The notes beneath the pieces are model-generated. The model made no database searches. It was not told the DNA's origin and saw only the letters and a list, made by a program, of their open reading frames with translations. Made by a program: the position numbers and the translations under genes. From IMG/VR virus record IMGVR_UViG_3300005915_000003, positions 1 to 48,878 of that record: DNA of 48,878 nt; one strand, 5' to 3'. Within the stretch, counting starts at the first letter, position 1, and each line of letters starts with the position of its first letter. Origin of the DNA: a virus. Positions 8,881 through 45,002 of this stretch are shown one piece after another.

Positions 8881-11355
8881 CTACCAATGGGCATATTCGC
8901 CCTCGTTAATTTCATTGTATTCATCCCATATTTCCTTCAATTCCAAATGGGCTACCTCTGAAACGTCTTTCGGTGCCTTCTTTGGCTCAACTCTCTTTTC
9001 AATGGTTCCAATAGGTCTGGACATGGCGATATGAGCGGCTTCATCAAAACAATTATGTACTGTTATACCACCATTAACACAAAATGCATGTGTGTAAGCA
9101 GCATCTAAACAGAAAACATCTTGTTCACCCACATAAATCACTTGCTTTACTTTTGCGTGTTTCCCATGTTGACCTTGAAGTACAATGTGGTGAACAAGTT
9201 TTTCCGAATCCAACAAATTTGGTTCCACACCATTTACATATTCCTTCGGATCTACTATCAAGTTGCCATTTCCTTTGCTGACACCTTCGTGAACAATAGA
9301 TTTGAAATGGCAATCCCTTAAAAACCTTTTCACAAAAGACACATGTTTTATCTGTTCGCTGACGTATTTTGTCTTTACAGTGTTTTTCGTACTGTTGTTT
9401 GTGCCATTCCAATCCTTCTTGACTTCCATGCCATTTGTTAGCCCCAACATGCAATGCATCAACCCATTGTTGTGTATAATTAAGTTTCCCATGTTGCGAC
9501 TTATGCTCTGAAGAGTCTTTACATTCAAGATTTTCAATTTGGTTATTATATCGGTTAAAGTCTTTATGATGGATATGATAACCCTTTTTAATTTTCCCAT
9601 TATGATATTCCCATACTGCCCGATGTAACCTTTTTCTTGTCCTAGCAAAGTATTTTTCTGATAATATGTACCTTTTACCATTAAACTCTTGTGTGGTACT
9701 GTCGATATTTTTGACTCGCATGTTAATACCTCCATAATATCTTTATTATTTTGGATACTAACATGGCACGCTTCATCAGTCAAGTCTTTTACTTCTTTCC
9801 ATCTACCATCACTGGTTAATATTTTGTGATCTTCAGTACAAGTAATAGATTTATCGTCATCGAATAAAACACGAAACACTTCTACTTTTTCTCTAGTTTT
9901 CCTACAATTATAAAAATCTGTCCAATATCCCCCACAGGTTAAAACCTTACCACTTTTACCTACAAGATTCTGTAATGTAATTTCCCCATCTTTTGTATCG
10001 ACTATTGTACTACCTACCAAACAATGGTCTTCACCTTTTGTATTAACGTCTTCAATGTTATTCTCATCGACTACGAGATTCGGCAAAGTCCTGATAAACT
10101 GTTTGCAATTAGGGTATACCTTCATCATCGGCATATCTTGATCGTGTCTCAGCCTCTCGTGCATCTGTTTAATCTTGGCGATTCGATTCTTATCATCTGC
10201 CGGTCTTAAAGTAAGCCCATTATCCCTGAAAACTTCCATTGTCGATGGACCCTGCCCGCCACCCAAGTAGTTAGGACGTTTCTGGAAACAATCACTCCCG
10301 GCCAGTCTCGAATTTACCCTTCCCCAGATCCCCAGACCTTTCTCTTTGGCAATAATCCCTTTGGCAATGTCTGTATCGGTCATTCTCAATCCCTGATTCG
10401 GGCTTCCATTCCACCCATACCATTCGTCAAACCGATAAACCCTACCGTCATTGTCTATCCACCACCACCCTATTGAAAACGGAGCACCAAAACCCCAATC
10501 ATAGGTCATTACGATAGGCGCATTATCAGGAACAGGCAAATCACCATCAACAACGTGCATCGGTGGCGACCATTCCTGAAACGCCTGACCTACAAAGACG
10601 TTCCAATCACCATCCCTAAAGGCCTTCCTGATCGCTTCGGGAAGAGTATTCAGCATGCCCCAATAGGTTGCGTCGATGTACTTGTTATCATCAGCCTTTG
10701 ACGGAATATAGCAGAATTGTTCCCTGTAATCTATAGGTTGTTCAAATGTCGGCGCCCATTCATCACCATATATCCGATCCATCCAAAGAGCTTTTACCCA
10801 CCCATGACCTACAGACCCAGGGTTCGTACCGCCTACAAACGGGCATTCTATGTCTTTCAGTCCTGGCCAACGAAGTCTCTGCCTCAAAAATGTGAACACA
10901 TCGTAATCGTTTTTGGTCAGTTCGTCAACGAGAATAGCCGCAAATTCACTTGAAGCGTACTTTGCAGGGTCATCGAGGTTCCTGAAGCAGATAATCCCAT
11001 TCCCATATTCAGGCGAAAGTATAAAACATCTCCCATAGTCTTTATGATCGGTATAGTTCTTGCCCAACCAATCAGGAAACTCTCTTGAAATCTTCTGTAA
11101 CTGACGATCCTTTAAAGCCGGATAGTTCTCACAAGCCAACATCACATTGACCCATGTAAGTCCATACTTGGCGAAGATCATCATTAAAAAACGTACTGCA
11201 AACCATCTCAGGCCATAGGACTTGCCCCCGCCCAACGCCCCACCATATAGAAGAAACTTATACAGTCCAGTATCAAACTGCTTGCAAAGCTCTATCTGCC
11301 GTGGTTGGAACTTGGCTATCTGATATTCAAAATTGAGATTCTGTCGCTTTTTCAT
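8881..11355 (-). CDS. Terminase large subunit interrupted by an intein
   Basis: DNA-packaging motor and nuclease. ATPase motifs are Walker A GGALGGGKS (about 38-46) and Walker B AAILVDELTKN (about 139-149). The RNase H-like nuclease begins at MTYDWGFGAPF (D286). After EDVNTKGEDH an intein of 324 residues (445-768) interrupts the protein; the C-extein resumes CFDEAAHIAMS. The intact extein motif GEDHCFDEAAH matches the conserved terminase segment carrying the last nuclease aspartate (D771). Spliced length would be 500 residues, normal for the family. I use the ATG at 11355 with GGAG upstream; a TTG at 11367 is also possible. A full HNH gene lies within the intein in another frame. Confidence 0.93.
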   Translation of the reverse strand: MKKRQNLNFEYQIAKFQPRQIELCKQFDTGLYKFLLYGGALGGGKSYGLRWFAVRFLMMIFAKYGLTWVNVMLACENYPALKDRQLQKISREFPDWLGKNYTDHKDYGRCFILSPEYGNGIICFRNLDDPAKYASSEFAAILVDELTKNDYDVFTFLRQRLRWPGLKDIECPFVGGTNPGSVGHGWVKALWMDRIYGDEWAPTFEQPIDYREQFCYIPSKADDNKYIDATYWGMLNTLPEAIRKAFRDGDWNVFVGQAFQEWSPPMHVVDGDLPVPDNAPIVMTYDWGFGAPFSIGWWWIDNDGRVYRFDEWYGWNGSPNQGLRMTDTDIAKGIIAKEKGLGIWGRVNSRLAGSDCFQKRPNYLGGGQGPSTMEVFRDNGLTLRPADDKNRIAKIKQMHERLRHDQDMPMMKVYPNCKQFIRTLPNLVVDENNIEDVNTKGEDHCLVGSTIVDTKDGEITLQNLVGKSGKVLTCGGYWTDFYNCRKTREKVEVFRVLFDDDKSITCTEDHKILTSDGRWKEVKDLTDEACHVSIQNNKDIMEVLTCESKISTVPHKSLMVKGTYYQKNTLLGQEKGYIGQYGNIIMGKLKRVIISIIKTLTDIITKLKILNVKTLQSISRNMGNLIIHNNGLMHCMLGLTNGMEVKKDWNGTNNSTKNTVKTKYVSEQIKHVSFVKRFLRDCHFKSIVHEGVSKGNGNLIVDPKEYVNGVEPNLLDSEKLVHHIVLQGQHGKHAKVKQVIYVGEQDVFCLDAAYTHAFCVNGGITVHNCFDEAAHIAMSRPIGTIEKRVEPKKAPKDVSEVAHLELKEIWDEYNEINEGEYAHW
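9052..10023 (-). mobile_element. Intein in the terminase large subunit
   Basis: The element begins with Cys (CLVGSTIVDTKDG, block A) and contains block B TCTEDHKILTSDG with the Thr and His of splicing domain 1. It ends with block F/G VFCLDAAYTHAFCVNGG...VHN, whose His-Asn pair is followed by the +1 Cys of the C-extein. All residues needed for class 1 splicing are visible. It is inserted at the nuclease active-site motif, so unspliced terminase should be inactive. The middle of the intein frame (about 200 residues) is basic and low in structure and overlaps the HNH gene at 9125-9721. Confidence 0.93.
9125..9721 (-). CDS. HNH homing endonuclease nested out of frame inside the intein
   Basis: 198 residues, read on the same strand as the terminase but in another frame. 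The ATG at 9721 has its own GGAGG seven bases upstream, both inside intein codons. The HNH motif is IHHKDFNRYNN (H51, H52, N60) with His73. Two treble-clef-like zinc fingers follow: C127/C130/C143/C147 and C162/C165/C176/C180. It ends at a TGA at 9125, before intein block F. It should cut the intein-free terminase allele to drive homing. The dual coding avoids stops in the intein frame over about 600 bases. Two compensating sequencing errors could mimic this but are unlikely given the private start signals. Confidence 0.9.
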   Translation of the reverse strand: MRVKNIDSTTQEFNGKRYILSEKYFARTRKRLHRAVWEYHNGKIKKGYHIHHKDFNRYNNQIENLECKDSSEHKSQHGKLNYTQQWVDALHVGANKWHGSQEGLEWHKQQYEKHCKDKIRQRTDKTCVFCEKVFKGLPFQIYCSRRCQQRKWQLDSRSEGICKWCGTKFVGFGKTCSPHCTSRSTWETRKSKASDLCG

Positions 11356-14605: not shown

Positions 14606-14727
14606 TTCTTTTCCTTTGGCTATGTTAGGTTATGTGACCCCAGGTATTATCCCAGGGCCACGTTATGAGGAGAGAGGTATGAGATTCTTTAGAGTATGAG
14701 AGACTGTGCAATTCTATTCATACCTGC

Positions 14728-14756
14728 ATTATTTCACAGCTTTATTGGCTTGTCAA
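14728..14756 (-). promoter_or_regulatory. Late-block promoter
   Basis: Minus-strand TTGACA (14756-14751), 17-base spacer, AATAAT (14733-14728): near-consensus sigma-70 promoter. It lies about 125 bases upstream of the first late gene (14605), leaving a leader of roughly 115 nt containing the direct repeat CCTGGG-6-CCTGGG. It should drive the whole leftward late block. Confidence 0.75.
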
Positions 14757-14819
14757 GCAACTATTTCCAAAGTTTACCAAAGGATTATGCGATTTATTTT
14801 GATTTAGTGCATTATCTAC

Positions 14820-14849
14820 TTGACATAGTATTATTAATAATAGTATAGA
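14820..14849 (+). promoter_or_regulatory. Rightward promoter with internal palindrome
   Basis: Plus-strand TTGACA (14820-14825), 18-base spacer, TATAGA (14844-14849). A perfect 14-base palindrome, TATTATTAATAATA (14829-14842), fills the spacer and is a likely operator. The promoter faces the block of tiny genes that starts at 14882 and diverges from the late promoter 60-90 bases away. Confidence 0.75.
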
Positions 14850-14881
14850 TTAATTAACACAATATGAAAGGGGCATGAGAC

Positions 14882-15034
14882 ATGAAGCATTACACTGAAA
14901 TTTCAAAGGGGCTCGATAGTGAAGGGACTTTCTGGACTGTCACTGTTGAAACCGACGACGAAGTTCGCCATTATGGCAAGTTCCGAGATAAATTCGACGC
15001 TTGGGACAAAGCAAATGAGATAGATAAACAATAG
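14882..15034 (+). CDS. Small hypothetical protein, 50 aa
   Basis: First gene after the rightward promoter, with AAAGGGG ten bases before the ATG. MKHYTEISKGLDSEGTFWTV begins a short beta-beta-alpha-like protein with an acidic, aromatic composition. Small soluble proteins first in an early operon are often host-takeover factors, but nothing here shows a target. Confidence 0.7.
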   Translation: MKHYTEISKGLDSEGTFWTVTVETDDEVRHYGKFRDKFDAWDKANEIDKQ

Positions 15035-18007: not shown

Positions 18008-18799
18008 CTAATCACGGTCGTAGTAGCTTTTACGGTCCTTCGGTGCTTCTCTCTCGGTTGTTTCGACAAGATAACCTCCCTTCTTTTCAAGCCATACTTT
18101 CTTCATCATGGCGCCGGTTCTTCGGTGCTGGTTCACTCTAACACATGCCAGATTGTCGTCTATTTCCGGGAATCTCTTTACCATTAAAGCACAATCTGAC
18201 TCCTGTTCAATGAAAGAAGCGTCTCGCGGATCTCCAAAACTATCCCCGTCTGATTTCTTCTTTGTATGTGCCATTAGAAAAACAATGAAGTTGTGCTTGA
18301 CAGCCATAAGTTTTAGATTGCGAATGATAGTCCCTATTTCCATTGATGCGTTACCCTGGCGCAGCATGTCAACAATATAATGCAGGTGATCGATAAAGAT
18401 TATCCGGGTATTGTACTTGTAGAATGATTCAAGGATGCGGGTTTCCAGCCATTGCCAGTTACCGGATTTCAGCATGGTCGGCATATAGAGCAGTGGCATA
18501 TCAGGAAAGCAATCTAAAAACTGTCTCGGGGGCAGTTCATACGTAAACCATAAAGAAAAATATCCCTGCTTGTAAAAGTTGTTTGTCAGTGTTTGAGCAA
18601 ATAAAGTCTTCCCGTTTTTCGTATAGCCTGATACCACTATCAACTCACCCGGTACAAATCCGTCAATGTATTTGTCAAGTGTCGATATGTTTGAGTTTAT
18701 ATTAAAAAGTATCTTCTGATCCCTTATGAGTTCTTCCATATCATGTGATGATATTATTTGATCTTCGCCGTGGTAGTCTTTCAGTTCTTCAATATTCAT
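18008..18799 (-). CDS. RecA/DnaB-fold ATPase, probable replicative helicase
   Basis: 263 residues from the ATG at 18799, chosen because GGGGAG lies eight bases upstream; an ATG at 18820 is also open. Walker A is SGYTKNGKT (57-65), Walker B is RIIFIDHLH (132-140, Asp137), and MAHTKKKSDG further on matches motif 3 of DnaB/RAD family ATPases. There is no N-terminal DnaB domain, so it is a short helicase or helicase loader acting with the DnaD-like protein two genes upstream. It should unwind or load at the phage origin. Confidence 0.85.
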   Translation of the reverse strand: MNIEELKDYHGEDQIISSHDMEELIRDQKILFNINSNISTLDKYIDGFVPGELIVVSGYTKNGKTLFAQTLTNNFYKQGYFSLWFTYELPPRQFLDCFPDMPLLYMPTMLKSGNWQWLETRILESFYKYNTRIIFIDHLHYIVDMLRQGNASMEIGTIIRNLKLMAVKHNFIVFLMAHTKKKSDGDSFGDPRDASFIEQESDCALMVKRFPEIDDNLACVRVNQHRRTGAMMKKVWLEKKGGYLVETTEREAPKDRKSYYDRD

Positions 18800-20701: not shown

Positions 20702-20900
20702 TACACCTCCCCTGTTTCTTCTCATAATCCTCATCCGTGATAAACTTCGGACAATCTGCACGATTCCATTCACCATTAAAATCGCATTGTCCCCGCCCCA
20801 CTAACCCCATCCCCCCGGCGCATTTCAACCAGTTACATTTAGCATTGTCACGGAACTCATCGTGTTCTTTAATCGTCATGTTTCTGTATGCCTTTGCCAT
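20685..20900 (-). CDS. Cys-containing hypothetical protein, 71 aa
   Basis: Start at the ATG at 20900 with GGGAGAG upstream, overlapping the previous stop (TAATG). CNWLKCAGG, GQCDFN and ADCPKF are spaced as in small phage zinc-ribbon proteins. The 3' end overlaps the HNH gene by 17 bases. Function unknown. Confidence 0.65.
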   Translation of the reverse strand: MAKAYRNMTIKEHDEFRDNAKCNWLKCAGGMGLVGRGQCDFNGEWNRADCPKFITDEDYEKKQGRCNEKED

Positions 20901-21115
20901 TACACTCTCCCTAAATCGGCAGCTCTTTTGTTCCACGCTTCCACGGCTTCTTTTTCTGTAGCGTGATACCACTGAGACACATTGCACTGGTCACACTTCA
21001 CCCAATATGTTGTTGATAGTTCCGTGAGAACCATCGTTTTTTTATTGCACACCGATTTGTAGCTGTGCATCACCGATGCCTCACCATCACAAAACGGACA
21101 TAATCTTAGTTCCAT
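20900..21115 (-). CDS. Lar-like restriction-alleviation zinc protein
   Basis: 71 residues with the Lar signature: LCPFCDGEA at the N-terminus, VKCDQCNVS in the middle, then EKEAVEAWNKRA at the end. Family members (E. coli Rac Lar) relieve type I restriction by promoting host methylation, though many phage members are uncharacterised. The match rests on the CPFC...CxxC...AxxAWNxR pattern. Placed early, where protection of entering DNA would be useful. Confidence 0.8.
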   Translation of the reverse strand: MELRLCPFCDGEASVMHSYKSVCNKKTMVLTELSTTYWVKCDQCNVSQWYHATEKEAVEAWNKRAADLGRV

Positions 21116-21827: not shown

Positions 21828-22277
21828 CTAATCGTTAATCTGTAACCTCATCCAGGGTATCTCATGCAGGTGTAACCCGATCAGAGGCACCAGTTTTTCA
21901 GCGGTTTTGTACCGTGGATGACGCTTGCCATAGGCCCACATTGTCAAAGTTGACGCCTTGTAACCCGCATCCAAGAGAGCCACCCTATTCTTTTTTACTG
22001 CATTCTGAAAAGGTGTAGAGATTAAGTATTGCTTTTCACGCTTCTCAACATATGCCTTAGAATGTTTTGTTGATATTCCAGTGCGTGTTTCTCCGTGACA
22101 TTTAGGACAAAGTAACTCAATATTTGAATCTTCGTGGTTGTCCTTATTCCCATCCTTGTGGTGCTGATCTAGTTTCAGGGGAACCGCACCACATTTCTCG
22201 CAACGATAACCTCTTTCACTTATCAATCTTACCCGATTCTTTTTTACCCAATAATGATTTTTGAAGTAACTCCTCAT
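21828..22277 (-). CDS. HNH endonuclease fused to a helix-turn-helix domain
   Basis: 149 residues. Residues 20-70 form a complete HNH domain: CEKCG, DQHHKDGNKDNHEDSN, LLCPKCHG. Residues 95-149 (VKKNRVALLDAGYKASTLTM, WAYGKRHPRYKTAEKL) look like a Cro/XRE-type helix-turn-helix with the family's G-x-R-x-P turn. The ATG overlaps the stop of the 56-residue HTH gene (ATGA), so the two are made from one leaderless transcript. A site-specific nickase or endonuclease is likely. The HTH could also give it operator-binding ability. Confidence 0.8.
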   Translation of the reverse strand: MRSYFKNHYWVKKNRVRLISERGYRCEKCGAVPLKLDQHHKDGNKDNHEDSNIELLCPKCHGETRTGISTKHSKAYVEKREKQYLISTPFQNAVKKNRVALLDAGYKASTLTMWAYGKRHPRYKTAEKLVPLIGLHLHEIPWMRLQIND

Positions 22278-22444
22278 TTCAACACCATCTTGATTAACCT
22301 TCTTAACGATTCGCCGGGTGCCCTTCCAGCAAGTAGCATTTTCACGTACCGGGGAGTTATTCCCAAAAGCGTTGCAACCGCACCCTCGCTACCCTCTCGC
22401 CTAACTAACTGTTTTACGTATGTTTTAGATGATTTATTTTTCAT
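22274..22444 (-). CDS. Small HTH repressor-like protein, 56 aa
   Basis: First gene of the leftward early block, from the ATG at 22444. EGSEGAVATLLGITPRYVKM is a helix-turn-helix, and the C-terminus GRAPGESLRRLIKMVLK resembles the closing helices of Cro/XRE proteins. The -10 box of its promoter ends only six bases before the ATG, so the mRNA should be leaderless, like lambda cI from PRM. It probably binds the repeats at 22466-22552 to control both divergent promoters. Confidence 0.75.
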   Translation of the reverse strand: MKNKSSKTYVKQLVRREGSEGAVATLLGITPRYVKMLLAGRAPGESLRRLIKMVLK

Positions 22445-22479
22445 GGCTAAAGTATATCAGAAAATAGTTCTTAATGCAA
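22445..22479 (-). promoter_or_regulatory. Leftward early promoter, leaderless
   Basis: Minus strand: TTGCAT (22479-22474), 17-base spacer, TATACT (22456-22451), then TTAGCC and the ATG at 22444. The expected transcription start coincides with the start codon. The -35 lies in one arm of the AATGCAAG/CTTGCATT inverted repeat. Confidence 0.75.
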
Positions 22480-22552
22480 GCACAGATAATGGAAAAAAGT
22501 TCTTGCATTAGCTGAAAGACTATGCCTATAATGCAATCACGATAAAGTTCTT
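22466..22552. promoter_or_regulatory. Operator repeats between divergent promoters
   Basis: Three direct copies of AGTTCTT (22466-22472, 22498-22504, 22546-22552). An 8-base inverted repeat, AATGCAAG (22473-22480) and CTTGCATT (22502-22509), abuts the first copy and partly overlaps the second, and its arms contain both -35 boxes. ATGCAA recurs at 22531-22536. The layout is that of a phage switch operator. Confidence 0.7.
22503..22532 (+). promoter_or_regulatory. Rightward early promoter
   Basis: TTGCAT (22503-22508), 18-base spacer, TATAAT (22527-22532). It drives the block that begins at 22653 with a leader of about 115 bases. The -35 overlaps the right arm of the inverted repeat, so one regulator could act on both directions. 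Confidence 0.75.
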
Positions 22553-22652
22553 TGGGGGAGGTATTACGAGTGGGATATGGTCATGGGTCGATTTATAGGG
22601 TACGGACTTGTTGCCTCCCCCTAGAAAGAATGACAATAGAAAGGAAGAGAGA

Positions 22653-22844
22653 ATGAGTGCAAAATCAGATAAAATGTTTATAACCGAAATTCTAAATGAT
22701 TTACACAGACATGGTTATGTTGAACGTGGCAAGGCCGATACCATGCTTTCCGATTGGGCTATTGAACTGCGAAGAAAGGCAGCAATGGCACCGTCAAGAT
22801 TAAGAAAAACCTTCAATGAAGAAGTTGGAGCATGTAACTGGTGA
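22653..22844 (+). CDS. Hypothetical protein, 63 aa, first gene of rightward early block
   Basis: ATG at 22653 behind AAGGAAGAG. Helical and charged ([20 protein letters not shown], then [14 protein letters not shown]), possibly a small DNA-binding fold; the [13 protein letters not shown] stretch could be a helix-turn-helix. As the Cro-position gene opposite the HTH repressor it is a regulator candidate, by context only. Confidence 0.65.
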
Positions 22845-26618: not shown

Positions 26619-26807
26619 ATGGAAGTAGATATCACAGATCAGGTCAAAGACCACATGGATCGACAGCCTTACGATATGGTTTGTTCTGTGTGTTGCGGAA
26701 GATTAACATTTACGAAAGATATCGATGGTGATTTAGACATGACACTTGAAATCGCTCCATGCGAAACATGCCTGAAAGAGGCAAGAGAGGAAGGTAAGGA
26801 AGGATGA
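26619..26807 (+). CDS. Zinc-ribbon protein, 62 aa
   Basis: VCSVCCGRLTF and PCETCLKEA are two CxxC knuckles separated by an acidic loop (FTKDIDGDLDMTLE). It overlaps the ERF gene start by four bases. Possibly a partner of the recombination proteins; unknown. Confidence 0.65.
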   Translation: MEVDITDQVKDHMDRQPYDMVCSVCCGRLTFTKDIDGDLDMTLEIAPCETCLKEAREEGKEG

Positions 26808-27604
26808 CAGACAAATCCATAGAAACCGAGTACAAGGTGATCGACAAGAGAAACGAAGAGGCACCTGTACCAGCAATCGCAACCCCTGCGAATGAATTTT
26901 TCAGCTTCCTTGAAAGCATGGCATCAAATCCAAACGTCGATGTAGCCAAGATAGAAGCACTTATTGGTATGCAGGAACGGGTACAGGACAGGGAAGCAAA
27001 ACAGGCTTTCAATGCGTCGATGGTCAGAGCGCAATCAAAGATTAAGCTGGTGGTGGCAAAATCAGAAAACAAACAGACAAGCAGCATGTACGCTAAACTG
27101 CAAGCTGTATTATTGTCAGCCAACCCTATCTATACGGCGGAGGGATTTTCTCTTATGTTTTATGAAGGGGAAGCCAAAAAAGAAAACCATAAAAGAGTCT
27201 GTGTTGATATCATGCACGAAGATGGTCACACTGAACAGAAGTACGGTGAATTTGCAATCCAGACAACGGGAATCGCTGGCAAGGCAATGATGACAGAAAT
27301 ACATGGTGAGGGTTCTGCATATTCCTATGGTAGAAGATACCTTACTTGCATGATCTTCAATATACCAACGGGTGATGACGACGATGGTAATGGGGCCGGT
27401 GGTGGTGGTGATTACATCACCGAGGAACAGGTATCGATACTCGAAGAAATGCTGAAGAAGGTTAAGGGTGGTACGACAGACGCATTTCTTGGTCTCATGC
27501 AATGTAAGTCAATGAAGGAAATCCCGGCGAAGAAATATGGGGCGGCACGACAGGCAATGATAGCGGCGCAGAAAAAGTCAATGGAGCCGGAGCAAGCATC
27601 ATGA
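26804..27604 (+). CDS. erf: ERF-family single-strand annealing protein
   Basis: 266 residues. The core (about 55-170) contains AFNASMVRAQSKIKLVVAKS, YAKLQAVLLSANPIYTAEGF and GEGSAYSYGRRYLTCMIFNI, the recognisable ERF-superfamily layout (P22 Erf). It should anneal complementary single strands in recombination and genome circularisation. A Gly/Asp-rich linker (GDDDDGNGAGGGGD) precedes a C-terminal helical tail. The ATGA overlap with the exonuclease gene matches the usual exonuclease-annealase pairing. Confidence 0.88.
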   Translation: MTDKSIETEYKVIDKRNEEAPVPAIATPANEFFSFLESMASNPNVDVAKIEALIGMQERVQDREAKQAFNASMVRAQSKIKLVVAKSENKQTSSMYAKLQAVLLSANPIYTAEGFSLMFYEGEAKKENHKRVCVDIMHEDGHTEQKYGEFAIQTTGIAGKAMMTEIHGEGSAYSYGRRYLTCMIFNIPTGDDDDGNGAGGGGDYITEEQVSILEEMLKKVKGGTTDAFLGLMQCKSMKEIPAKKYGAARQAMIAAQKKSMEPEQAS

Positions 27605-28218
27605 TAATCATAGAATGCGAACAGTACGAGGATGCGTGGTGGGACGCCAGATTAGGCGTTCCAACCGTTTCTCAATTCATCAAAATACAGACTGCCACCA
27701 AAGATGCGTCAAAGCAACAAGAAAAATACCTACGCCAGTTGGCAGTTGAACGAGTCACGGGTAAACATGCCGGGAACAATTATCAAAGCTATGAAATGAA
27801 ACAAGGGCACGAAACGGAAGATGAGGCACGTAGGACATTTCAATTTATTACGGGCATGGAAGTTAGACAGGTCGGCTTTATATTCCATGACGAGCAAAGA
27901 AAGTATGGAGCATCACCTGATGGACTTATGGAAGATGCCGGGTTAGAGATATTTTGCCCCGACTATAACAATGCCCTGGAATGCCTGTTCAATCCAAAGG
28001 ATGCAGTAAAAATAGCAAAGAAGTACCAACAAATCCAAGGTAGCATGTCGGTCACTGAGTTTAAGCGGTGGTTCTTTATGATGTACTACCCAGGGTTAAA
28101 GCCTTTAATCCAAGAGATCCACCGTGACAATATTTTCATCGGCAAGCTCAGAGCAGAATTGGAAGCGTTCTGCCTCAAATTGGCGATGGTTACGAAGAAA
28201 TTGAGGGAACTGCAATGA
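27601..28218 (+). CDS. YqaJ/lambda-exonuclease-like recombinase nuclease with altered active site
   Basis: 205 residues. WWDARLGVPTVSQFIKIQT near the start, GASPDGLMEDAGLEI (D107, E116) and YQQIQGSMSVTEFKRWFFMM are the YqaJ viral recombinase motifs. The family's catalytic Lys (ExK, normally EIKCP) is replaced by Phe118 in EIFCP; the codon is TTT at 27952-27954. Either another lysine substitutes or the nuclease is impaired. It would normally resect double-strand ends 5' to 3' for the ERF protein. Confidence 0.82.
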   Translation: MIIIECEQYEDAWWDARLGVPTVSQFIKIQTATKDASKQQEKYLRQLAVERVTGKHAGNNYQSYEMKQGHETEDEARRTFQFITGMEVRQVGFIFHDEQRKYGASPDGLMEDAGLEIFCPDYNNALECLFNPKDAVKIAKKYQQIQGSMSVTEFKRWFFMMYYPGLKPLIQEIHRDNIFIGKLRAELEAFCLKLAMVTKKLRELQ

Positions 28219-28415
28219 TGGAAAAGCCAGAATATAGAGAAGTAAATAAATGGGAAGATGATTACGAAGTAGGGCACGGCGAGGGTCGGAATGAAACGAT
28301 TGACGAGTACGAGAAGTTCCTGCCGGGTGCTGAAGAGATAAGGCTTATATTGCTAGGCAATGACACACCAGCACTGAGAGCTATTGCACTCGCAAAGAGG
28401 ATAGGAAAGGAGTAG
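28215..28415 (+). CDS. Small acidic hypothetical protein, 66 aa
   Basis: ATGA overlap with the exonuclease gene. Acidic first half (WEDDYEVGHGEGRNETIDEY), helical second half (GAEEIRLILLGNDTPALRAI). No motif recognised. Confidence 0.65.
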   Translation: MMEKPEYREVNKWEDDYEVGHGEGRNETIDEYEKFLPGAEEIRLILLGNDTPALRAIALAKRIGKE

Positions 28416-28417
28416 TC

Positions 28418-28663
28418 ATGAAAGCAGGTGACAGGATAAGGGTTTTTACATACACGATGGGTCACAGAACAGGGACTAAAGACTTTACTGTTGAAGAATT
28501 TAGATATTGTCTTGGAATTTTTGAAAATGCGATGTGTAAAGAAGCGGGTCACTTTACGCCTTTATGTAATCTGTATGAGACTGGACCAGATAGCGAAGAA
28601 AGGTATATCAGCAATTTTGGCCCATATCACACTAGCATGGTCCAAGCATGGATGGACATTTAA
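28418..28663 (+). CDS. Hypothetical protein, 81 aa
   Basis: AAAGGAG just upstream of the ATG. Mixed alpha/beta (MKAGDRIRVFTYTMGHRTGT, EEFRYCLGIFENAMCKEAGH). Not recognised. Confidence 0.65.
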   Translation: MKAGDRIRVFTYTMGHRTGTKDFTVEEFRYCLGIFENAMCKEAGHFTPLCNLYETGPDSEERYISNFGPYHTSMVQAWMDI

Positions 28664-28675
28664 AGGAGTAGAGGG

Positions 28676-28819
28676 ATGACTATAATATGTTGCTTAATAA
28701 GTTTTTTACTAGGTGCAGGTCTAATGTTCTTGTGCCGTGGATCGGGGCGTGCAGAGCTGGAACAGAAGATAATCATGCTCCAGGAGGAAGTTAAAATGTA
28801 CGAGATAGGGGAGGGGTAG
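28676..28819 (+). CDS. Single-pass membrane protein, 47 aa
   Basis: AAAGGAGTAGAGGG before the ATG at 28676. Residues 2-20 (TIICCLISFLLGAGLMFLC) form a membrane segment with two adjacent cysteines, followed by a cytoplasmic charged helix (AELEQKIIMLQEEVKMYE). Similar small membrane proteins are frequent in phage early regions; function unknown. Confidence 0.65.
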   Translation: MTIICCLISFLLGAGLMFLCRGSGRAELEQKIIMLQEEVKMYEIGEG

Positions 28820-28820
28820 G

Positions 28821-29009
28821 ATGAAGAAGCGGATAATTTTAGTGTTTGACCCAGACAAAGAGGAACTAAGAATAACGAGGGGTGACTATACCCTCACGGT
28901 TGAGTGTTTTCTAAGAAATGCTAACGGGTTGCACGTTTGCACCTTAACGGACTATGCCGAAAGGATGATAGTGAAGGTATTGTTCGAGAATTTATTAGAA
29001 AAGGAGTAG
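28821..29009 (+). CDS. Small hypothetical protein, 62 aa
   Basis: GAGGGGTAGG before the ATG. Beta-rich start (RIILVFDPDKEELRITRGDY) with two Cys later. No motif recognised. Tightly packed between neighbours. Confidence 0.65.
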   Translation: MKKRIILVFDPDKEELRITRGDYTLTVECFLRNANGLHVCTLTDYAERMIVKVLFENLLEKE

Positions 29010-29013
29010 CAGG

Positions 29014-29472
29014 ATGAAAATAAACCTAATCAAAACTATTTCCGGGTTACTCCCCGCTGATCCTGATTCAGAAGAAAGTTATAAGAAAATTAAGACTGGT
29101 TCTATGGTTGAAACAGAGACCAAGGAGGTAAGGAACCCGGCTTTCCTTCGCAAGTATTTTGCTCTAATAAATATAGGCTATGATAATTGGGTACCTCCCA
29201 AAGTGAGTTCAATATATGGTGTTCCTGAAAAGAACTACAAAAAGTTCAGGGATGACGTAACTATCCTGGCTGGATATTTCCATATTGTTATCCGACTAGA
29301 TGGCAGTACACAGATAGTAGCAGACAGTATATCCTTTGCGAACATGGTCGAGGAAACATTCGGGAAACTTTACAATGCCACAATTACTGTGCTCCTGAAG
29401 AGGGTTTACAACGATACGCTGTCTAAAGAAGACCTTGATAACATCGTTAATTCGTACATGAGCTTTACGTAA
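29014..29472 (+). CDS. DUF1367 protein
   Basis: 152 residues. VRNPAFLRKYFALINIGYDN, then KFRDDVTILAGYFHIVIRLD and ADSISFANMVEETFGKLYN, follow the DUF1367 pattern (RNPxFHRKYFALLxxxxxxW, FRxxxTIxAG, AxSISFxxM). The family is found near recombination genes in lambdoid phages and its function is not established. GGAGTAGCAGG precedes the ATG. Confidence 0.8.
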   Translation: MKINLIKTISGLLPADPDSEESYKKIKTGSMVETETKEVRNPAFLRKYFALINIGYDNWVPPKVSSIYGVPEKNYKKFRDDVTILAGYFHIVIRLDGSTQIVADSISFANMVEETFGKLYNATITVLLKRVYNDTLSKEDLDNIVNSYMSFT

Positions 29473-44390: not shown

Positions 44391-45002
44391 ATGTCTAACA
44401 AATTTAAAGATATCACAGGTCAAACTTTTAATCGTCTTTTCGTAATCTGCAAAACAACCCCTAACAAATGGAATAAGGCACGATGGAAATGTAAGTGCTC
44501 TTGTGGAAATTTTATTGATGTAGATGGTGAAAGTCTTAAAAGCAAAAACACTCAAAGCTGTGGTTGCCTTAATAGAGAACGTAGTCACGAGGCTAACCAC
44601 AAGCATGGATTGTGTGGCACTCCAGAATACACATCGTGGTGTCAAATGATAAGTCGTTGTCATTGCCCGACTGCTAAATACTTTTTCAATTATGGAGGAC
44701 GAGGTATTGAAGTTTTCCCAGAATGGAGAGAAGATTTCATGTCCTTTTACAATCACATCGGAGCAAGACCAACTGTTAAACATACCATAGAGCGAATTGA
44801 TAACAATGCTGGTTACTTTCCCGGCAATGTTCGATGGGCAACAAGACGAGAACAAGCTAACAATACCAGACGCAATCAGTTTATAACTGCCAATGGAGAA
44901 ACGCATACAATAGCACAGTGGGCTAGAATTACTGGCATCTGCGCCGGTACGATTTATAGTCGTATCAGACTTGGATGGAACCCGGTAAAAGCTGTTATTT
45001 AA
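44391..45002 (+). CDS. Free-standing HNH/AP2-type homing endonuclease, antisense to late genes
   Basis: 203 residues; GGAG lies before the ATG. An N-terminal Cys cluster (WKCKCSCGNFIDV ... SCGCLN) precedes the family core (HTIERIDNNAGYFPGNVRWA, TRREQANN). This RIDN.GxYxPGNxRWAT...Q..N motif marks a phage HNH homing family, often with an AP2-like N-terminus. A helix-turn-helix-like segment closes it (TIAQWARITGICAGTIYSRI). It occupies the gap between two minus-strand virion genes without disrupting either. Confidence 0.85.
   Translation: MSNKFKDITGQTFNRLFVICKTTPNKWNKARWKCKCSCGNFIDVDGESLKSKNTQSCGCLNRERSHEANHKHGLCGTPEYTSWCQMISRCHCPTAKYFFNYGGRGIEVFPEWREDFMSFYNHIGARPTVKHTIERIDNNAGYFPGNVRWATRREQANNTRRNQFITANGETHTIAQWARITGICAGTIYSRIRLGWNPVKAVI

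What the first reader, a model, noticed from the sequence alone, without database searches (positions are those of the whole stretch)
22445..22652. Phage switch region with leaderless HTH mRNA
Two near-consensus promoters diverge with both -35 boxes inside the inverted repeat AATGCAAG/CTTGCATT, next to three AGTTCTT repeats. The leftward -10 ends six bases before the ATG of a 56-residue HTH protein, so its message should be leaderless, as for lambda cI from PRM. The genome has no visible integrase, so this looks like an immunity-type switch in a phage not obviously temperate, or a lytic early/late switch.
Basis: partly seen in the sequence, partly recalled or inferred. Interest (0 to 1): 0.6.

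Follow-up and report, generated by a model that had tools for sequence, protein, structure and literature searches.

The report
Leaderless Cro-type phage early switch
Two back-to-back promoters in a complete environmental phage genome drive its replication genes one way and its recombination genes the other, and the first leftward gene encodes a tiny Cro-type repressor whose messenger RNA probably begins exactly at its start codon, a layout also found in diverged relatives.

Summary
The -10 boxes are strong (TATACT with extended TG; TATAAT), but "near-consensus" is too generous: both -35s are TTGCAT (3/6). The leftward -10 ends 6 nt before the only possible ATG of the 56-aa HTH gene, with no Shine-Dalgarno. 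Of 571 ATG ORFs of at least 40 aa in the window it ranks first for a promoter placed for leaderless transcription. A better description of the repeats is three copies of GTNNTTGCATTA, the only exact copies in the genome, covering both -35s and the rightward -10.

The architecture is conserved. Three relatives whose HTH proteins are 39-48% identical to it have the same divergent switch, with the leftward -10 ending 7 nt before ATG.

The interpretation needs changing. The HTH gene heads the replication operon opposite Erf/exonuclease/NinB, so it corresponds to lambda Cro, not cI. No integrase and no CI-type repressor were detected. I read it as an autorepressing early-gene switch that turns down both early operons.

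Leaderless cro is known (PY54), so this is a variant of a known kind. The new points are the missing cI partner, the conservation, and a survey suggesting leaderless Cro/YdaS genes are common (8 of 24 in gammaproteobacterial genomes). All transcription starts and protein binding are inferred.

The parts
22274..22444 (-). 56-aa Cro/YdaS-type HTH protein, first gene of the leftward replication operon, predicted leaderless
   Evidence: Homologs in L003, L008, L016; predicted XRE/Cro-like helical fold; weak YdaS/HTH_3 match itself, relatives match HTH_3 above cut-off (L003) and YdaS/P22_Cro weakly
22451..22479 (-). Leftward promoter: -35 TTGCAT (22474-22479), 17-nt spacer, TG-extended -10 TATACT (22451-22456); predicted start at the A of ATG (22444)
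   Evidence: equivalent placement in L003, L008, L016
22503..22532 (+). Rightward promoter: -35 TTGCAT (22503-22508), 18-nt spacer, -10 TATAAT (22527-22532)
   Evidence: stronger divergent promoters at the same place in L003, L008, L016
22472..22483 (-). Operator-like site 1 GTGCTTGCATTA, covers the leftward -35
22499..22510 (+). Operator-like site 2 GTTCTTGCATTA, covers the rightward -35
22529..22540 (-). Operator-like site 3 GTGATTGCATTA, overlaps the rightward -10
22456..22552 (+). Three AGTTCTT-containing 17-nt direct repeats (22456-22472, 22488-22504, 22536-22552), role unknown
21828..22277 (-). 149-aa HNH endonuclease-like protein with a possible C-terminal HTH; its ATG overlaps the HTH gene's stop codon
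   Evidence: PHROG HNH families to 1e-10; weak C-terminal HTH_3 match
22653..22844 (+). 63-aa protein, first clear gene of the rightward operon, function unknown
   Evidence: SD -5.6 kcal/mol
22554..22621 (+). Hairpin in the rightward leader (GGGGGAGG / CCTCCCCC)
   Evidence: same arms in the L003 rightward leader
18008..18799 (-). DnaB-like helicase gene in the leftward operon
26804..29472 (+). Erf, YqaJ/RecE-type exonuclease and NinB genes of the rightward recombination operon

Best explanation
This is the central early switch of the phage. Two sigma70-type promoters placed back to back fire on infection. The rightward one drives recombination genes (63-aa protein, pentapeptide protein, Erf, exonuclease, NinB). 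The leftward one drives the 56-aa HTH protein and then replication genes. The leftward message starts at the A of the HTH ATG, so the repressor is probably translated from a leaderless mRNA. As the HTH protein accumulates it binds the three GTNNTTGCATTA sites, which cover both -35 boxes and the rightward -10, and turns down both early operons, as lambda Cro does late in infection. Shown by sequence: promoters, sites, gene order, conservation of the layout. Inferred: transcription start, DNA binding, direction of regulation, timing.
For: Promoter placement ranks 1/571 in the window, 1/127 in L003, 1/159 in L008 and 3/74 in L016 among ATG ORFs of at least 40 aa. In the window, L003 and L016 the best promoter within 60 nt of the ATG is at 6-7 nt; in L008 the 7-nt site (9.1) is tied with one at 1 nt (9.2). 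No Shine-Dalgarno in any of the four. The upstream stop codon leaves no other start in the window. Back-to-back -35s are conserved: 23 nt apart in the window, 24 in L008/L016, 45 in L003. From the HTH ATG out past the rightward -10, L008 and L016 match at 107 of 117 positions, but only 13 of 50 beyond it without gaps. Operator-like sites are unique to this locus. Gene order: HTH opposite Erf in L008, opposite exonuclease and the 327-aa homolog in L003. Family link to YdaS/P22_Cro. Controls: the same score finds lambda cI and PY54 cro as leaderless and lambda cro as leadered. Precedents: PY54 cro is leaderless by RACE (PMC4488713); YdaS acts as a Cro (PMC8630535).
Against: No transcript or binding data. 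The -35 boxes are weak in the window. The sites are not palindromic 14-17-mers as usual for Cro dimers; they could be half-sites. They are not found in the relatives, so operator sequence is not conserved. The Pfam match of the window protein itself is below cut-off. The scan missed PY54 cI, which is leaderless by RACE. The weight matrices were entered from memory, and the relatives' lifestyle is unknown.
Confidence: 0.7

Rival explanations
1. Immunity repressor: the HTH protein is a CI-type repressor that maintains a prophage or plasmid-like state, with the leftward promoter acting like lambda PRM.
For: Leaderless placement as for lambda cI; operators over both promoters.
Against: Only 56 aa with no dimerisation or cleavage domain; heads the replication operon, so it would be made together with replication proteins; no tyrosine integrase or serine recombinase and no partition or integrase family in the Pfam list of 84 genes; YdaS/P22_Cro family.
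Confidence: 0.12
2. Nuclease-associated regulator: the HTH gene belongs to a mobile endonuclease module and mainly controls the neighbouring nuclease gene.
For: In L003 an HTH 68% identical to it is fused to a GIY-YIG-type MUG113/T5orf172 domain; in the window the next gene is an HNH nuclease with overlapping ATGA.
Against: L003 also has a separate HTH gene at the switch; in L008 and L016 the HTH gene has no recognised nuclease next to it yet the position and promoters are conserved.
Confidence: 0.1
3. The layout is real but the message has a short leader or starts elsewhere, and the HTH protein is not an autorepressor.
For: No experimental start site; -35 boxes weak.
Against: The next best leftward promoter in the window scores 6.3 against 10.5 and would still leave no Shine-Dalgarno; independent relatives agree.
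Confidence: 0.08

Closest known systems
Yersinia phage PY54 cro/cI switch (PMC4488713)
   Same: Small Cro whose mRNA is leaderless; -10 ends 6 nt before ATG and no Shine-Dalgarno on the same scan
   Different: PY54 has a divergent cI and a plasmid prophage state; its Cro binds one 16-bp site and is thought not to repress itself
Phage lambda PR/PRM region
   Same: Divergent promoters with three operator-like sites; recombination and replication operons in opposite directions; leaderless message for one regulator (cI)
   Different: Lambda cro has a 24-nt spacing and a strong Shine-Dalgarno; lambda keeps cI and rex between PL and PR, absent here
YdaS/PaaR2 switch of prophage CP-933P (PMC8630535)
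   Same: YdaS is a Cro analog of the same Pfam family as the relatives; sites overlap both divergent promoters; one regulator mRNA is leaderless
   Different: There the leaderless gene is the CI analog paaR2, and a two-repressor bistable switch is present

Membership tests
Cro/YdaS-type XRE repressors | HTH of Cro/C1 (XRE) type | tested here: met
   L003 homolog passes HTH_3 cut-off (27.8 vs 23); window model matches 434 Cro, N15 Cro and P22 c2 (Z about 5.5), a common fold; profile link to L014 YdaS/P22_Cro protein, probability 76
Cro/YdaS-type XRE repressors | Sequence above the curated YdaS or P22_Cro Pfam cut-off | tested here: not met
   Window protein 16.1 bits vs 30; L008 24.1 vs 30
Cro/YdaS-type XRE repressors | First gene of an early operon, opposite another early operon or a repressor | tested here: met
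   Window, L003, L008
Cro/YdaS-type XRE repressors | Binds operators over the divergent promoters and represses | not testable with these tools
   Three candidate sites only
CI-type immunity switch | Repressor with C-terminal oligomerisation or cleavage domain | tested here: not met
   56-aa protein is HTH only
CI-type immunity switch | Divergent cI/cro pair and integrase or other maintenance module | tested here: not met
   novel or very diverged modules not excluded
Leaderless mRNA | 5' end at the A of the start codon | not testable with these tools
   Promoter placement and lack of Shine-Dalgarno fit

The most novel reading that the evidence does not exclude
Leaderless transcription is a general and selected property of Cro/YdaS-type early repressors across many phage lineages, including phages that have lost or never had a CI partner. 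It would tie the repressor's translation to 70S or stress-type initiation and so make the switch sense the host's translation state.
Probability: 0.25. Interest if true: 0.65.

Novelty: new variant of a known kind. Interest (0 to 1): 0.4.

Why it matters
Leaderless phage repressor mRNAs are known from a handful of cases, such as lambda cI, PY54 cI/cro and paaR2. Here the same placement recurs at the head of the replication operon in diverged phages with no detected cI, and in 8 of 24 YdaS/Cro genes of gammaproteobacterial genomes against 0.9% of ATGs. If transcript mapping confirms it, leaderless Cro becomes a rule that can be tested genome-wide, and it offers a simple CI-less early switch for comparison with lambda.

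Tried and rejected
Reading the HTH gene as a cI analog: rejected on position, size and family. Homology between the C-terminal HTH of the HNH protein and the HTH family: not seen (hhalign probability 0.1). Significant profile match to lambda Cro itself: none (probability 0.3). GTNNTTGCATTA sites in relatives: none. Cultured phages with the HTH protein: no match for the window protein, only weak ones for the relatives. Bacterial genome hit L020 and viral loci L018/L019: no shared switch, only short local matches. Rfam: no match. AlphaFold model of the HNH protein: too poor to use. L002/L004 is the same phage (identical over 13.1 kb but for its last base), so it adds no comparative evidence.

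Full report
Setting. The window is a whole IMG/VR virus record with a 70-bp end repeat, so it is probably a complete phage genome. Structural genes run leftward. At 22.5 kb two early operons part: leftward are the 56-aa HTH gene, an HNH gene, small genes, a NinG-like gene, a replication protein and a DnaB-like helicase; rightward are a 63-aa gene, a pentapeptide protein, Erf, a YqaJ/RecE-type exonuclease and NinB. Of 84 genes scanned, none matched an integrase, partition or CI family in Pfam at 0.001, and direct searches for tyrosine integrases and serine recombinases found none in the window or in three relatives, whose records may be fragments.

The observation. The -10 boxes are strong, but each -35 (TTGCAT) matches only 3 of 6 positions, and the plain scan does not list these promoters. 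With a weighted score the leftward promoter is in the top 21 of 97,636 positions and the rightward in the top 40. The upstream stop codon, 5 codons before the ATG with no ATG, GTG or TTG between, leaves ATG 22444 as the only start. The gene has no Shine-Dalgarno, unlike the other identified genes.

Operators. They are the only exact copies in the window, and three copies with at most one mismatch never arose in 400 shuffles. Site 1 holds the leftward -35, site 2 the rightward -35, and site 3 overlaps the rightward -10. The AGTTCTT repeats form a second, overlapping family. Which family the protein reads is not known.

Comparison. The HTH protein has relatives in three viral records: L003 (48% in the alignment), L008 (39%) and L016 (43%; close to L008). 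In all three the HTH gene lies at a divergent pair of promoters. In L008 Erf, exonuclease and NinB run the other way; in L003 the exonuclease and the 327-aa homolog do; the L016 contig was not checked for the opposite operon. Scoring every ATG ORF of at least 40 aa for a promoter whose -10 ends 5-8 nt upstream, the HTH gene ranks 1/571, 1/127, 1/159 and 3/74. L008 and L016 are not independent of each other. The distance between -35 boxes is 23, 45, 24 and 24 nt. Between L008 and L016 the block from the HTH ATG past the rightward -10 is conserved and then similarity breaks off.

Wider survey. In other Erf-encoding viral loci the same blind scan put an HTH gene on top in L042, L011, L012 and L014, with the best promoter 5-6 nt from the ATG. 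Among 24 YdaS or P22_Cro genes from gammaproteobacterial genomes, 8 score 8 or more, against 0.9% of ATGs and 2% of first ATGs of long ORFs. The threshold was chosen after seeing the scores, so the tail probability (about 1e-9, or 6e-7 against the ORF control) is only a guide. Most of the other genes have no strong promoter there, so leaderless Cro is common but not universal. Controls: lambda cI and PY54 cro are recognised, lambda cro is correctly rejected, PY54 cI is missed.

Identity. The predicted structure (mean pLDDT 79, pTM 0.55) is a small helical HTH whose nearest solved structures are XRE proteins, among them 434 Cro, N15 Cro and P22 c2, at middling scores. The window protein is below the Pfam cut-offs, but L003's relative passes HTH_3 and the profile aligns with the YdaS/P22_Cro protein of L014. 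I therefore call it Cro-type by position and fold and do not claim full family membership.

Mechanism and known systems. The most likely working is Cro-like: both early operons fire on infection, and the HTH protein then represses both. Leaderless cro has been shown in PY54 (PMC4488713), and YdaS has been shown to act as Cro (PMC8630535). The kind is therefore known. The variant here is a CI-less switch with the leaderless layout conserved across diverged phages.

Limits. Start sites, binding and repression are all inferred. The promoter weights were entered from memory of E. coli consensus frequencies, and the host is unknown.

Noticed in passing
window 8881-11355 and 9125-9721 (-): The terminase large subunit ORF holds an intein (about residues 445-762), and a full-length HNH endonuclease gene with a strong Shine-Dalgarno (-10.6 kcal/mol) lies inside it in a different frame of the same strand while the intein frame stays open.
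   Followed up: partly
window 22554-22621 (+); L003 5143-5164 (-): The rightward early leader carries a hairpin with arms GGGGGAGG/CCTCCCCC, and the L003 rightward leader has the same arms; a 28-codon leader ORF (22570-22656) overlaps the 63-aa start.
   Followed up: partly
L003 5695-6144 (+): A GIY-YIG-type (MUG113/T5orf172) domain is fused to an HTH 68% identical to the window's 56-aa protein, with the same recognition-helix sequence.
   Followed up: partly
window 44391-45002 (+): An HNH endonuclease gene (phrog_374, E 3e-64) lies against the direction of the structural operon.
   Followed up: no
window 14606-14882: A second divergent junction lies between the leftward structural operon and a short rightward group of small genes, with a good-looking TTGACA promoter near 14821.
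   Followed up: no
window 20900-21115 (-): Lar-type restriction alleviation gene (PF14354, E 9.2e-12) in the leftward operon.
   Followed up: no
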